Below are positions 59,137 to 64,000 of a DNA stretch of 64,000 nucleotides, in pieces; the stretch's first letter is position 1, and each line of letters starts with the position of its first letter. The notes under the pieces are model-generated. The model made no database searches, was not told the DNA's origin, and was given only the letters and a program-made list of their open reading frames with translations. Position numbers and translations under genes: made by a program. The DNA comes from Gracilimonas sp. (lineage in GTDB: Bacteria > Bacteroidota > Rhodothermia > Balneolales > Balneolaceae), in contig NZ_JAVJQO010000008.1 in NCBI RefSeq assembly GCF_040218225.1, positions 310,001 to 374,000 on the forward strand, written 5' to 3'.

Positions 59137-60090
59137 TTACTCCCTCCCCATCAGGGAGCATACACAGGCGGTATTTACAATATCTTCCCAGGAACAGCCT
59201 CTGGAAAGATCCATCATGGGCTTGGCTAATCCCTGAATAATCGGACCGGTTGCAGTAGCCCCGGCTAGTCGCTCTGTAATTTTGTAAGCGATATTTCCGG
59301 CATCAAGGTTTGGGAAAATAAACACATTGGCCTGTCCTGCTACTTCTGATCCCGGTGCTTTGCGTATGGCAATATCAGGAATTATAGAAGCATCGAATTG
59401 CAGTTCACCATCTACCGGAAAATCCAGATTATGAGATTTTACGATTTCCAGGGCTTCCCGGACCAGATCTATGCGCTCGTGTTCAGCACTGCCTTTTGTA
59501 GAAAAAGAAAGCATGGAGACTTTTGGACCAGCTCCGGTAACTTTTTTATGGGTTTGAGCTGAATCCATTGCGATGGTGGCCAGTTGCTCAGCATTGGGAT
59601 ATGGCACTACCGCACAATCTCCATAGGTAAACACACGGCCGTCATCAAAACTCATGAGGAATACACTGGATACGACATTAGAACCCGGTTTCAGGCCAAT
59701 GGTTTGAATTGCTGCCCGAAGAACATCACCGGTTGTAGATACTGAACCAGCTACACAGCCGTCGGCATCACCTGCTGCAACCATAGCCGAAGCGAAGAAA
59801 AGCGGGTCTTTAATAATTTCAATAGCTTCTGCTTCAGATAGTCCTTTATGTTTCCTTCTCTCATAAAAAGAATGTGCATATTTCTTAAGGTTTTCGTCCG
59901 AAACCGGGTCAATAAATTTTAGTTCTTCAGGAATTGAAGCACTTTCATTCTGAATCAGTATGGGCTTAGCCAGATCATTTTCCTGCAAAAAAAGAGCTGC
60001 TTTAATTACCCGCTCATCCGAAGAGCGCGGAAACACGATGGTTTTTAAGTCCGATTTTGATCTTTTTCGAATGTCTTCAATGATATCCAT
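59137..60090 (-). CDS. pta: Phosphate acetyltransferase (short form)
   Basis: Interconverts acetyl-CoA and acetyl phosphate. The 317 aa cover only the catalytic PTA/PTB domain, as in the Bacillus type, without the regulatory N-terminus of the long enterobacterial form. Characteristic blocks are VFPRSSDERVIKAALFLQEN, AGDADGCVAGSVSTTGDVLR, SMLSFSTKGSAEHERIDLVR and QANVFIFPNLDAGNIAYKI. The ATG at 60090 is used (MDIIEDIRKRSK); it shares one base with the stop of the transporter gene. It forms the acetate pathway with ackA three genes upstream. Confidence 0.95.
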   Translation of the reverse strand: MDIIEDIRKRSKSDLKTIVFPRSSDERVIKAALFLQENDLAKPILIQNESASIPEELKFIDPVSDENLKKYAHSFYERRKHKGLSEAEAIEIIKDPLFFASAMVAAGDADGCVAGSVSTTGDVLRAAIQTIGLKPGSNVVSSVFLMSFDDGRVFTYGDCAVVPYPNAEQLATIAMDSAQTHKKVTGAGPKVSMLSFSTKGSAEHERIDLVREALEIVKSHNLDFPVDGELQFDASIIPDIAIRKAPGSEVAGQANVFIFPNLDAGNIAYKITERLAGATATGPIIQGLAKPMMDLSRGCSWEDIVNTACVCSLMGRE

Positions 60091-60953
60091 TATCCTACTA
60101 GTAAAATGATTGAAATTACTGCTACAGCCAGTCCTGACCATTGCTTCGCCGAAGGTTTATCTTTCCATATTCCGATACCAATGATCGTCCCTAAAACAAC
60201 CAGGCTCACGTTCACAAGTGGGAAGACGATAGAGCCGGGCATAAGTTTTAACGCATAAATCAAAAATATGGACGAATAGAGATTTACAACTCCGGTGGCT
60301 ATACCATACACGATTTCTGTGAAGTTAAAATGAATCTCCCTCCTTTTTAAAAGAATTACTATTCCCACTAAAAAGGAAAAAAAGAAAATTCCCGAAACAA
60401 AAAGATCTTCCGAAATCTGTTGGGAAAACAACTGCTCATACACTTTCAGTCCGGTGTCGGCCATTCCTGTCATTAAAAAAATTAATACCGGCAACCACGC
60501 ATGGGAGAATCCGGAAATACTTTTCGTGCTTATGCGTGGCACCATCAGCAACAATGAGCCCAAGGCCAGGATGATTCCAATGTATTTCAATCCACCGATG
60601 GCTTCACCAAATACAAACAGGCTAATTCCAATCGGGAAAATCAGAGACATTCGCATCGCGGCTATACTAACGCCCATTCCCACCCTGTCGATTGAACGGC
60701 TATAAACCACCATATTAGCGATGAATATTATCCCCAGAATGAGCGCAAGAATAATAAGCCAAATTCCTGGATCGGGAGAGATTTCGGGGAAAACAGAAAA
60801 TTCAGTTGAATTGAACAAGCTGATTAAAAACCCAGCCAGATAATTGCAAACCAGTATTTTGAGTACATTCAGCTTTCTGTTTTCAGCAAGCTTTAGTATT
60901 TGGGCAATGGTAAGCGAACACGAAATACTCAGAAATATGTAGAGCAATCCCAT
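60090..60953 (-). CDS. EamA/DMT-type membrane transporter
   Basis: An inner-membrane protein of 287 aa with about ten hydrophobic segments in two EamA-like halves, short loops and few charges. The second half ends ISIILLVG. DMT proteins export or import small metabolites, amino acids or nucleotide-sugar-like compounds; the substrate cannot be read. It shares one base with pta and one with the caspase-like lipoprotein gene, so all are translated from one message. Confidence 0.88.
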   Translation of the reverse strand: MGLLYIFLSISCSLTIAQILKLAENRKLNVLKILVCNYLAGFLISLFNSTEFSVFPEISPDPGIWLIILALILGIIFIANMVVYSRSIDRVGMGVSIAAMRMSLIFPIGISLFVFGEAIGGLKYIGIILALGSLLLMVPRISTKSISGFSHAWLPVLIFLMTGMADTGLKVYEQLFSQQISEDLFVSGIFFFSFLVGIVILLKRREIHFNFTEIVYGIATGVVNLYSSIFLIYALKLMPGSIVFPLVNVSLVVLGTIIGIGIWKDKPSAKQWSGLAVAVISIILLVG

Positions 60954-62683
60954 CAGTTCAGAAGCTCAAGCTCACTGTTTCCGAAGAATAATGGATTCTG
61001 AGGGCGTTCATAAAGACTGCGGGACGTAAAAGGCACATTCCTTTCTAAATGATTATAGATGGCATTCATCGTCATATTTCGCTCTTTAATGGCTTCAGCC
61101 AGATAGTATGTAAAAATGCTATGTCTGTTTTGCTCTCCACTTGTGGAGGAATAAATTCCCGAACGTTGACCTGGCCTTGAAGAAAAGAATACAGCTGACG
61201 CAAAATTTCTATCTGTAATAATGGAAGCAAGATTATCCAGAGGCTGGGTTGAACCATTTTCATTCAGTATATCGAGATCCGCAAAAACTTTAATAGAGTT
61301 TAAGTCCAGGTTATTGAAAGCTCTGAATAATTTTTGAAGATCAATATATTGTAGTTCCCCATCATCAGATAACTCGCTTCCCAACAGATAAACCTGGCCA
61401 TCCCTGATTTCTGCATAGCCATTAATGTATACATTAAGATTGTGCCGGGAATCATTTATAGTTGAAGCCAGTCGGGAGTAAGCTCTGTCTACCATCATAT
61501 CGCTGGTGGCATTCATTGCCTTTACGACTCTCGTACTTCTGACACCAAAACCCTGAATGAAATATTCTTCCATTAATTTCGCGTCACGCTGACCATAAAT
61601 ACGTTCCGAAAATTCTCCTTCATACTGATTGTTGGACAGTATAAAAGCTCCTGAATTAAGCGAGCTTCTTCCCAATACCGGAATATTTCTCTCCACATCA
61701 ACCGAGCCAAAGGGAACATTGGGGATGGCAACAACAGAAAGATCGGAAGCAAATTCAGAGGGCCTCCAAATAGTGCGTACATCATTTACCGAAACCCAGG
61801 TTTCAGAAATACCATACAACACTTTATACCAATCGCCTTCTTTAGAAACCAGCTTTAGCTGACTTCCTTCAGCCAGATCGGTTAGAATATTACCCGGGTT
61901 AGATTCCGGTTCATTCCTAAGAGCCGTAATTTGCACGTTTACTACCACAAATTGTTCAAAAACAGACGGAACCGCTACTTCTTTTCTATGAGTTAAAGAA
62001 TCATATGATGCTTCAACAACGATATTCTGTCGGGGATTTTCATCAAATATTCCGGCATCCACTTCTTCTGCAAGGTTAATTGAGATACGTCCCCTGTTAA
62101 AATCCCATTCTTTATTCTCTACCAATATCCTGTTGTTGTAAGAAATTCGGATTCCGGGGTTATCGGTGTTATATGGACGAGCAGAGGTAGTATCAACCTC
62201 CGTGGTGGTACCGGTCTGCCTCAATAAACGGCTTTCCCCGGTGCGTGTAGGCTCACCAACAGGTTTCATATTTAAAAAAGACAAACCGGTTAGCAGGGTG
62301 CCTGCTCCGGTTAAAGCATACCGCTGTATATCAGAAGGACGATCCAGAAATTGATCAGAAAAAGCAGCATAGTAAGACAGTCCCGCTCCGGCAGCACCGA
62401 GTAAAACATATCCTAGCCTGGGGCGATACCTTTGTATATAACGCTCAGTTTTCACCCTTTCAGCGTATTCATAGGTATTAATTGATTTCAGGTCAAAATG
62501 AATAATGGGCTGGTTTGGCGTGATACCATTGGTGCTTTCTAAATAATACTGGGATGAAATAAGCTCATAGTCGTTAATATCAAGAGCCTGATCATCAACA
62601 ACTACCCAACTGGTACTTGAGCATCCCTGTAATAACAAGCTTGCTACTAAAGCAGCAAAAATTAAATAGTTTTTTAAGCCCAT
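60953..62683 (-). CDS. Lipoprotein with SH3-like and degenerate caspase-like domains
   Basis: Lipobox LLQGC (Cys21). Residues about 251-305 form an SH3b-like domain (AEGSQLKLVSKEGDWYKVLY), and about 325-576 match the caspase-like C14 fold: a first strand GAFILSNNQYEG, and the insertion block MEEYFIQGFGV with KAMNATSDMM as in such proteases. Where active members have GHG, this one has NGYA at 420-423. Where they have the catalytic Cys after DAC, it reads FADLDIL (467-473). Both catalytic residues look lost, so it is probably a pseudoenzyme. It overlaps ackA by 10 bases. Confidence 0.78.
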   Translation of the reverse strand: MGLKNYLIFAALVASLLLQGCSSTSWVVVDDQALDINDYELISSQYYLESTNGITPNQPIIHFDLKSINTYEYAERVKTERYIQRYRPRLGYVLLGAAGAGLSYYAAFSDQFLDRPSDIQRYALTGAGTLLTGLSFLNMKPVGEPTRTGESRLLRQTGTTTEVDTTSARPYNTDNPGIRISYNNRILVENKEWDFNRGRISINLAEEVDAGIFDENPRQNIVVEASYDSLTHRKEVAVPSVFEQFVVVNVQITALRNEPESNPGNILTDLAEGSQLKLVSKEGDWYKVLYGISETWVSVNDVRTIWRPSEFASDLSVVAIPNVPFGSVDVERNIPVLGRSSLNSGAFILSNNQYEGEFSERIYGQRDAKLMEEYFIQGFGVRSTRVVKAMNATSDMMVDRAYSRLASTINDSRHNLNVYINGYAEIRDGQVYLLGSELSDDGELQYIDLQKLFRAFNNLDLNSIKVFADLDILNENGSTQPLDNLASIITDRNFASAVFFSSRPGQRSGIYSSTSGEQNRHSIFTYYLAEAIKERNMTMNAIYNHLERNVPFTSRSLYERPQNPLFFGNSELELLN

Positions 62684-63891
62684 GGAGTTTGCTTTGAAGC
62701 CGTAGCTATTTTGGCTGCATCTATTGCGATCACCAATTCTTCATTAGTTGGAATAACGTGAACATCCACATCTGAATTGTCTGCACTAATTTTAGTTTCG
62801 TTGCCCAAATCTGCGTTTTTGTTCACATCAATTTCAATGCCGGCATATTGCATATTCCCTAGTATTTTCTCACGGATGGGGGCTGCATTTTCACCTATAC
62901 CACCTGTAAAAATGATCGCATCCACTCCATTTAATGCCGCAATGTAAGATCCGATGTATTTCTTTACCCGATAGCAAAAAACATCAATGGCTTCATTACT
63001 GCGGCGGTCACCACTTTCAGCTTCATCCAGTAAATCACGCATATCGGCAGCATATCCGCTGAGGCCCAGAAGTCCGCTATGCTTGTTCAATAAAGCATGA
63101 ACATTTGCAAGAGATAATTCCTCTTTCTCTATGAGGTAGAACAAAATAGATGGATCTATATCGCCACTTCTGGTTCCCATAACCAAGCCTTCGAGTGGAG
63201 AAAAACCCATGCTGGTATCGTATGATTTACCATCTTTGATAGCGGTTACCGAACATCCGTTACCCAAATGACATGTAATTACTTTGGAACCTTCCTTTGG
63301 TTTGCCTGATATTTTGTGATACTGACGACTCACGTAATAATGTGAGGTTCCATGAAAACCATACTTTCTGATTTTATATCTGCGATAGAGTCGATTGGGA
63401 ATACCATATAAATAGGCATGTTGTGGTAAAGAATGATGGAAAGCTGTATCAAAAACAGCCACGTGCGGCACATTGGGCAGATGCTGTTTGGCAGCGCGAA
63501 TCCCCTCCAGATTTGGGGGATTATGCAACGGAGCGATATCAAAAGCTTGCTGAATCGCTTCTTCAACATCTTCGTCGATGAGTACAGAATCTTTAAAGGT
63601 TTCCCCTCCGTGTACCACCCGATGGCCAACAGCTTCAATTTCATCAAGGGATTGAAGAGAATCATTGTCAGACTCAATCAACAATTCCATAATTTTCTTA
63701 AGAGCAGCTGCATGGTTTTCAATTACCATAGACTTTTTAAGCGGCTTCTCATCCTTAAATTCTTGTTTGATAATTGAAGTCACCGCCCCGATACGCTCGA
63801 CTAACCCCTTGCATAAACACTCTTTATTCTCCGTGTTTATGAGTTGGTATTTAATAGATGAACTACCGCAGTTTATTACCAGAATTTTCAT
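62674..63891 (-). CDS. ackA: Acetate kinase
   Basis: Converts acetyl phosphate and ADP to acetate and ATP. Typical stretches are MKILVINCGSSSIKYQLI at the start, GHRVVHGG, FDTAFHHSLP, RRYKIRKYGFHGTSHYYVS, CHLGNGCSVTAI, TRSGDIDP and IIFTGGIGENAAPIREKIL. Length 405 aa is standard. It shares the operon with pta but is separated from it by two membrane or envelope genes, unlike the usual adjacent ackA-pta pair. Confidence 0.97.
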   Translation of the reverse strand: MKILVINCGSSSIKYQLINTENKECLCKGLVERIGAVTSIIKQEFKDEKPLKKSMVIENHAAALKKIMELLIESDNDSLQSLDEIEAVGHRVVHGGETFKDSVLIDEDVEEAIQQAFDIAPLHNPPNLEGIRAAKQHLPNVPHVAVFDTAFHHSLPQHAYLYGIPNRLYRRYKIRKYGFHGTSHYYVSRQYHKISGKPKEGSKVITCHLGNGCSVTAIKDGKSYDTSMGFSPLEGLVMGTRSGDIDPSILFYLIEKEELSLANVHALLNKHSGLLGLSGYAADMRDLLDEAESGDRRSNEAIDVFCYRVKKYIGSYIAALNGVDAIIFTGGIGENAAPIREKILGNMQYAGIEIDVNKNADLGNETKISADNSDVDVHVIPTNEELVIAIDAAKIATASKQTPWA

Positions 63892-63898
63892 GAGTGAG

Positions 63899-64000
63899 TT
63901 AAAGTGAGATTACTGCTCCAATGCCTATCAAATTACGAAATTTGAAAGTTTTTTCTCCATTCTCGGGATCAGATATCCAAAATGGCACCTCATACCTGAT
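63899..64000 (-). CDS. 3' end of an upstream gene, barrel-like C-terminus (truncated by window edge)
   Basis: Read on the minus strand, 33 codons stay open from the window end to a TAA at 63899-63901. The amino-acid pattern FKFRNLIGIGAVISL, preceded by YEVPFWISDPENGEKT, alternates as in beta-strands and looks like a real C-terminus, possibly of an outer-membrane or surface protein. The stop is 7 bases before the ackA start, so it belongs to the same operon. No family can be assigned from 33 residues. Confidence 0.6.
   Translation of the reverse strand: MRYEVPFWISDPENGEKTFKFRNLIGIGAVISL

What the first reader, a model, noticed from the sequence alone, without database searches (positions are those of the whole stretch)
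60953..62683. Pseudo-caspase lipoprotein inside the acetate kinase - phosphotransacetylase operon
Seen: a lipoprotein with SH3b-like and caspase-like regions in which both catalytic positions are replaced (NGYA for the usual GHG; FADLDIL where a DAC-type Cys motif is expected). It overlaps ackA by 10 bases and shares one base with the transporter gene that overlaps pta. Known: caspase-like proteins can persist as inactive binding or sensor proteins. Inferred: an envelope sensor or peptidoglycan-binding adaptor co-expressed with acetate metabolism, which is an unexpected pairing.
Basis: partly seen in the sequence, partly recalled or inferred. Interest (0 to 1): 0.5.

Follow-up and report, generated by a model that had tools for sequence, protein, structure and literature searches.

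The report
Dead caspase lipoprotein beside acetate genes
A Gracilimonas bacterium carries a lipid-anchored envelope protein with the shape of a caspase but without the cutting residues; it belongs to an old, conserved family that usually sits in an acetate-gene operon but does not depend on it.

Summary
The 576-aa ORF (window 60953-62683, minus strand) is a predicted lipoprotein with an SH3b domain and a C-terminal caspase fold (Pfam C14 over cut-off; model matches solved caspases, metacaspases and MALT1 at Z 18.2-20.5). The catalytic Cys is absent in 54 of 54 distinct homologues, replaced by Asp/Glu in 49. The His is Tyr in 33 and kept in 8, all from one sister family. No other Cys is conserved besides the lipobox Cys. 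A paralogue read in one congener has an intact dyad. Synonymous change is near saturation while the protein is conserved, so this is a maintained pseudo-protease, not a decaying gene.

The operon linkage is old and tight (ackA directly upstream in 26 of 43 loci; a 10-base overlap in four genera). Genomes do not show functional coupling: 7 of 44 carriers lack both ackA and pta, and 9 of 13 non-carriers have both. In 10 of the 17 loci without adjacent ackA, an unnamed predicted outer-membrane protein gene abuts it.

Best reading: a non-proteolytic, membrane-tethered binding or scaffold protein of the periplasm, an order-specific variant of the known pseudo-orthocaspases. The binding role is inferred, not shown.

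The parts
60953..62683 (-). Pseudo-caspase lipoprotein gene, 576 aa
62621..62683 (-). Signal peptide and lipobox (residues 1-21, LQGC; lipidated Cys21)
   Evidence: Cys21 in 54 of 54 distinct homologues and the only column with 5 or more Cys; lipobox rule recalled
62174..62623 (-). N-terminal stalk-like region, residues 21-170: three long predicted strands (21-51, 60-88, 139-167)
   Evidence: AlphaFold2 models
62273..62416 (-). Moderately hydrophobic helical hairpin, residues 90-137, possible membrane insertion
   Evidence: helices 90-108 and 118-137; hydropathy
61955..62173 (-). Small beta domain, residues 171-243 (least conserved region)
61766..61954 (-). SH3b domain, residues 244-306
   Evidence: Pfam SH3_3 in 5 of 19 homologues; Z 8.2-10.0 to bacterial-type SH3 domains over 60-67 residues, the first 13 rows
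61673..61765 (-). Conserved linker, residues 307-337 (PFGxVDVExxIP)
   Evidence: highest mean pairwise identity of the five regions, 0.41, although the model has no confidence at 308-326
60956..61672 (-). Caspase-like domain, residues 338-576
   Evidence: Pfam C14; Z up to 20.5 to metacaspase 4 and MALT1
61412..61420 (-). GYA, residues 422-424, where GHG is expected (His position = Tyr423)
61271..61279 (-). DLD, residues 469-471, where DAC is expected (Cys position = Asp471)
   Evidence: Asp469 in 54 of 54; position 471 Asp 42, Glu 7, Ser 3, Phe 1, Met 1
62674..63891 (-). ackA, upstream operon gene, overlaps by 10 bases
60090..60953 (-). EamA-type transporter gene, downstream, shares one base
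59137..60141 (-). pta (likely start at 60090 by homology)
63899..64000 (-). 3' end of the predicted outer-membrane protein gene upstream of ackA; it continues beyond the window (L076:7900-9105, start not fixed)
   Evidence: outer-membrane nature judged from the sequence, recalled

Best explanation
The protein is a membrane-tethered pseudo-caspase that binds and does not cut. Shown by sequence and model: a lipobox Cys, a caspase fold without catalytic Cys in any homologue examined, an SH3b domain, and strong constraint. Inferred: the lipid and a hydrophobic helical hairpin hold it in a membrane (outer membrane most likely); three strands of 29-31 residues form a stalk, roughly 90-100 angstroms if straight, that carries the SH3b and caspase-like domains into the periplasm; the SH3b domain binds cell wall or a partner peptide; the old substrate cleft, now with Asp in place of Cys, holds a peptide or protein ligand, so that the whole acts as a scaffold or receptor in the envelope. 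Its place in the ackA-pta operon reflects an old gene block and shared expression, not a role in acetate chemistry.
For: Fold. Dyad loss: Cys in 0 of 54, His in 8 of 54; 39 of 54 proteins hold a single Cys, the lipobox one (partial N-termini included). Intact dyad in 9 of 9 related caspases read in full, one of them from a congener; the pseudo group lies on one side of a branch, support 98/96 (23 pseudo and 9 intact rows chosen). Constraint: against congener G001 dN is 0.069 while dS is beyond the method for the whole gene and 2.0-3.0 in two regions; omega 0.053 between G001 and G007. SH3b. Dissociable from acetate enzymes. No intact partner caspase needed: 39 of 44 carriers, the window's genome included, show no other C14 match at E<=0.001.
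Against: No ligand, location or phenotype is known. The stalk and its length rest on models with pTM 0.47 (whole) and 0.63 (N-terminal part) from 17 sequences; coordinates were not inspected. The hairpin is only weakly hydrophobic (mean 1.31 and 0.65). SH3b domains do not all bind peptidoglycan. The operon is conserved over several families, which could still mean a conditional link to acetate. The C14 search that found no partner caspase also missed the pseudo-caspase itself in 23 of 44 carriers, so a diverged partner could be missed. Constraint is looser against G008 (omega 0.087 overall, 0.142 in the caspase domain).
Confidence: 0.6

Rival explanations
1. Acetate-linked envelope sensor: the protein works with AckA, Pta and the EamA transporter, for example sensing or transporting acetate or an acetyl-phosphate-dependent state.
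For: ackA is the immediate upstream gene in 26 of 43 loci, with the same 10-base overlap in ten loci of four genera (starts chosen by rule); pta lies in 35 of 43 loci. In five of six fetched f3 loci from genomes without ackA and pta, a divergent acetyl-CoA synthetase gene lies upstream (Pfam on one of them).
Against: 7 of 44 carriers lack both enzymes and 9 of 13 non-carriers have both. ackA is not adjacent in 17 of 43 loci. greA, NUDIX, outer-membrane protein and suf genes share the same block, so long-term gene-order conservation is enough. The seventh carrier without both enzymes (L069) has no acs in its 11.7 kb locus.
Confidence: 0.15
2. cFLIP-like regulator: the dead caspase binds an intact caspase of the same cell and controls it.
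For: Such pseudo-caspases are known in animals and trypanosomes (passages in PMC6426788). Five carriers have another C14 match (G001, G005, G007, G027, G032); the one read, in G007, has an intact dyad.
Against: 39 of 44 carriers show no other C14 match at E<=0.001, the window's genome among them; the search is not fully sensitive.
Confidence: 0.05
3. New enzyme: the acid pair Asp469-x-Asp/Glu471 with conserved Arg and Gln residues is a new catalytic or metal site on the caspase fold.
For: Position 471 is acidic in 49 of 54 and Asp469, Arg555, Gln562 are in 54 of 54; pseudo-orthocaspases described so far mostly have Ser there (PMC6426788, passages).
Against: Asp469 is also present in intact relatives (DAC in 9 of 9), so only 471 is new; 5 of 54 have Ser, Phe or Met there.
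Confidence: 0.1
4. Partner of the neighbouring predicted outer-membrane protein: both are parts of one envelope assembly and acetate genes lie between them in part of the order.
For: That gene is found in 38 of 43 loci, more than ackA or pta, and abuts the pseudo-caspase gene by 1-17 bases in ten loci without adjacent ackA (starts chosen by rule).
Against: It is also present in 9 of 13 genomes without the pseudo-caspase and absent in 5 of 44 carriers; in one genome it sits next to eamA with the pseudo-caspase gene missing (L146).
Confidence: 0.2

Closest known systems
Pseudo-orthocaspases (Klemencic et al. 2019, PMC6426788; SyOC of Synechocystis, PMC7889975)
   Same: Bacterial caspase-fold proteins with the His-Cys dyad replaced; His to Tyr is a common change there and here.
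   Different: Cys becomes Asp/Glu here, mostly Ser there (also Gly); predicted lipoprotein with stalk and SH3b; Balneolota, not Cyanobacteria or Rhizobiales; conserved operon place.
Peptidase family C14 (caspases, metacaspases, paracaspase MALT1)
   Same: Fold over residues 338-576, Z up to 20.5; Pfam C14 match.
   Different: No catalytic Cys in any homologue examined and mostly no His.
Intact caspases of the same phylum (L134-L138) and of congener G007 (L045; a similar gene in G001, L046, was fetched but not read)
   Same: Nearest relatives of the caspase domain by score; in several a short stretch ending in (I/L/V)-P precedes the domain, as seen by eye.
   Different: Intact GHG and DACFSG; other N-terminal parts.
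Bacterial SH3 (SH3b) domains of NlpC/P60-type hydrolases
   Same: Residues about 243-308, Z 8.9-9.8 to such chains (that the dipeptidyl-peptidase VI entries are NlpC/P60 enzymes is recalled).
   Different: Here beside a pseudo-caspase, not a peptidoglycan hydrolase.

Membership tests
Peptidase C14 as a protease family | Caspase fold | tested here: met
   Z 18.2-20.5 over 196-215 residues in the 50 rows shown: caspases, metacaspases, MALT1
Peptidase C14 as a protease family | Profile match over curated cut-off | tested here: met
   29.7 bits against 21.4; 12 of 19 aligned homologues match at E<=1
Peptidase C14 as a protease family | His-Cys catalytic dyad | tested here: not met
   Cys in 0 of 54, His in 8 of 54
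Peptidase C14 as a protease family | Proteolysis after a basic or acidic residue | not testable with these tools
   needs an assay
Pseudo-orthocaspases | Bacterial caspase-fold (p20) domain with substituted dyad | tested here: met
Pseudo-orthocaspases | No separate p10 domain | not tested
   the Pfam model used spans the domain as one; no p10 model was run
Pseudo-orthocaspases | Shared descent with the cyanobacterial and alphaproteobacterial groups | not tested
   tree holds only sequences of the window's phylum
Bacterial lipoproteins | Signal peptide ending in a lipobox Cys | tested here: met
   Cys21 in 54 of 54, preceded by a hydrophobic stretch in the window protein
Bacterial lipoproteins | Lipidation and membrane location | not testable with these tools
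   needs labelling or fractionation
SH3b domain proteins | SH3b fold or profile | tested here: met
   fold; Pfam in 5 of 19 homologues but not in the window protein
SH3b domain proteins | Cell-wall binding | not testable with these tools
   needs a binding assay
Acetate pathway component | Co-occurrence with ackA and pta | tested here: not met

The most novel reading that the evidence does not exclude
The Balneolota have turned a caspase into a lipid-anchored, stalked envelope receptor: the DAC nucleophile motif became an acidic D-x-D/E motif that forms a new ligand, metal or catalytic site, carried with an SH3b domain to the cell wall and expressed with acetate metabolism as a read-out of carbon overflow.
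Probability: 0.1. Interest if true: 0.6.

Novelty: new variant of a known kind. Interest (0 to 1): 0.35.

Why it matters
Bacterial pseudo-caspases have been described mainly from Rhizobiales and Cyanobacteria (PMC6426788, passages) and have few assigned functions. This one is a mostly single-copy, conserved family of one order, in organisms that mostly show no other caspase by the search used, so regulation of a partner caspase is an unlikely explanation. It gives a clean case of a protease fold kept for a non-proteolytic task in the envelope, with sister lineages in which the Cys is lost throughout and the His kept in one.

Tried and rejected
Relocated dyad: rejected, as no Cys column with 5 or more Cys exists besides Cys21. 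Pseudogene in decay: rejected by constraint and by frames without stops in all matches listed. Acetate pathway component by co-occurrence: not supported. Regulator of an intact caspase: weak. Relatives of the N-terminal region outside the order: none in 247 genomes of the phylum (31 genomes match, all in the order; four f4 genomes without). Known fold for residues 21-243: only rows of Z 7.4-7.5 over 85-88 residues touch it in the list, which neither shows nor excludes one. Sequence search of solved structures: no hit for the protein and only a chance-level one for the profile. Name for the upstream outer-membrane protein: no Pfam or NCBIfam match. Promoter and terminator scan: fewer hits than shuffles, uninformative. 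Literature: 'Balneolaceae' with 'caspase' gave no paper; pseudocaspase/pseudoprotease terms gave two, one relevant; Balneolaeota/Gracilimonas with lipoprotein gave nothing relevant in the ten listed.

Full report
What is there. The ORF at 60953-62683 (-) encodes 576 aa. It meets an EamA-type transporter gene in a one-base stop/start contact and begins inside the last 10 bases of ackA. The window is from the genus of Gracilimonas mengyeensis and G. amylolytica: their contigs (L119, L132) have the same lengths as contigs of same-genus genomes G003 and G002.

Domains. Pfam gives C14 at 346-564. A model from 17 sequences (pLDDT 82, pTM 0.47) matches metacaspase 4 at Z 20.5 (rmsd 2.6, 212 residues) and MALT1 at Z 20.5 (rmsd 2.8, 209 residues), then animal caspases (Foldseek gives the same families). 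The N-terminal part modelled alone (pLDDT 88, pTM 0.63) shows an SH3b domain at about residues 243-308 by Z 8.2-10.0 to bacterial-type SH3 domains; Pfam SH3_3 hits 5 of 19 homologues, not the window protein. Before it lie three long strands and a helical hairpin in both models. If the strands are straight they measure 92-99 angstroms (3.3 per residue); strand two would return toward the lipid end and the hairpin follows it, so hairpin and lipid could share one membrane. That is inference.

Dead site. In 54 distinct homologues position 469 is Asp in all, 471 is Asp 42, Glu 7, Ser 3, Phe 1, Met 1, never Cys; 423 is Tyr 33, His 8, Phe 6, Ser 4, Lys, Gln and Ile 1 each. The eight with His are the eight fetched members of one sister family (f3) and read GHG or GHA, with DTDW at the Cys position. 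Cys loss is thus universal among those examined and His loss is not; Cys going first is the simplest order, but the deep branches are not firmly resolved. Nine related caspases read in full all have GHG and DACFSG, including one from congener G007. The 23 pseudo rows lie on one side of a branch with 98/96 support; ps_L044 has a very long branch.

Constraint. Against congener G001, dN is 0.069 with dS beyond the method's range (dN 0.065 for the caspase domain); G001 against G007 gives omega 0.053; the window against G008 gives 0.087 overall and 0.142 in the caspase domain. Mean pairwise identity over 43 sequences: stalk 0.37, beta domain 0.21, SH3b 0.37, linker 0.41, caspase 0.31.

Distribution. 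44 of 57 genomes (the window's own included) have it; 9 of 9 genomes of family f4 and four genomes of f1 do not; these four are incomplete (71 and 86%) or small (1.5 and 1.8 Mb), though in G011 the locus is present and the gene is missing. In a draw of 296 genomes of the phylum, 38 have a full-length match, all in the same order; 23 others match in the caspase domain region only. The N-terminal profile alone finds nothing outside the order in 247 genomes. A second C14 match occurs in 5 of 44 carriers; the same search misses the pseudo-caspase itself in 23 of 44, so it is not exhaustive. With the family profile, three of 38 carriers show a second, weaker match (G007, G305, G316).

Neighbourhood. 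In 43 fetched loci (42 relatives and the window's own) the commonest block reads greA, NUDIX, outer-membrane protein, [ackA], pseudo-caspase, [eamA], [pta], sufB, sufC. ackA is directly upstream in 26, the outer-membrane protein gene is present in 38, pta in 35 (counted from the listing; some contigs are cut). Gaps are -10 to +98 bases with ackA and 1 to 17 with the outer-membrane protein where it abuts, in ten loci (starts chosen by rule). The 10-base overlap is found in ten loci: seven Gracilimonas, L068 and two f5 genomes. In five of the six fetched f3 loci from genomes without ackA and pta, a divergent acs gene and an MFS gene lie upstream; L039, the sixth, is cut by the contig end.

Acetate link. 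Of 44 carriers 33 have both enzymes and 7 neither; of 13 non-carriers 9 have both and 3 neither. The pairing is therefore a conserved gene order with dissociable partners.

Known background. Pseudo-orthocaspases make up 8.6% of bacterial caspase homologues, mostly in Alphaproteobacteria and Cyanobacteria, with 10 of 1078 in Bacteroidetes; Tyr-Ser is the commonest pair (PMC6426788, passages). The 2012 survey lists dyad substitutions, operons and functional classes (PMC3501461, passages; 'acetate kinase' 0 times in its main text). Deleting SyOC made Synechocystis more tolerant of oxidative stress (PMC7889975, abstract and section list).

Verdict. A real, conserved, catalytically dead caspase-fold lipoprotein; a new variant of a known kind. 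Function is inferred as binding or scaffolding in the envelope.

Noticed in passing
L034, L035, L041, L042, L043: In genomes of one family without ackA and pta, an acetyl-CoA synthetase gene and an MFS gene lie divergently upstream of the pseudo-caspase gene, between it and the outer-membrane protein gene.
   Followed up: partly
63899-64000 and L076:7900-9105 (-): Unnamed 400-aa protein with a signal-peptide-like start and barrel-like C-terminus (judged by eye) upstream of ackA; found in 48 of 57 genomes, no Pfam or NCBIfam match.
   Followed up: partly
L141, L142, L145: In family f4 the eamA-pta pair follows a giant ORF of about 2400-2500 aa instead of the pseudo-caspase (SprA-like by size, recalled, not tested).
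   Followed up: no
L045:5971-6897 (-): Congeners G001 and G007 have an additional caspase-like gene; the G007 one, read in full, has an intact His-Cys dyad.
   Followed up: partly
L146:11145-13205: In G011 the outer-membrane protein gene directly precedes eamA; the pseudo-caspase gene is missing there.
   Followed up: yes
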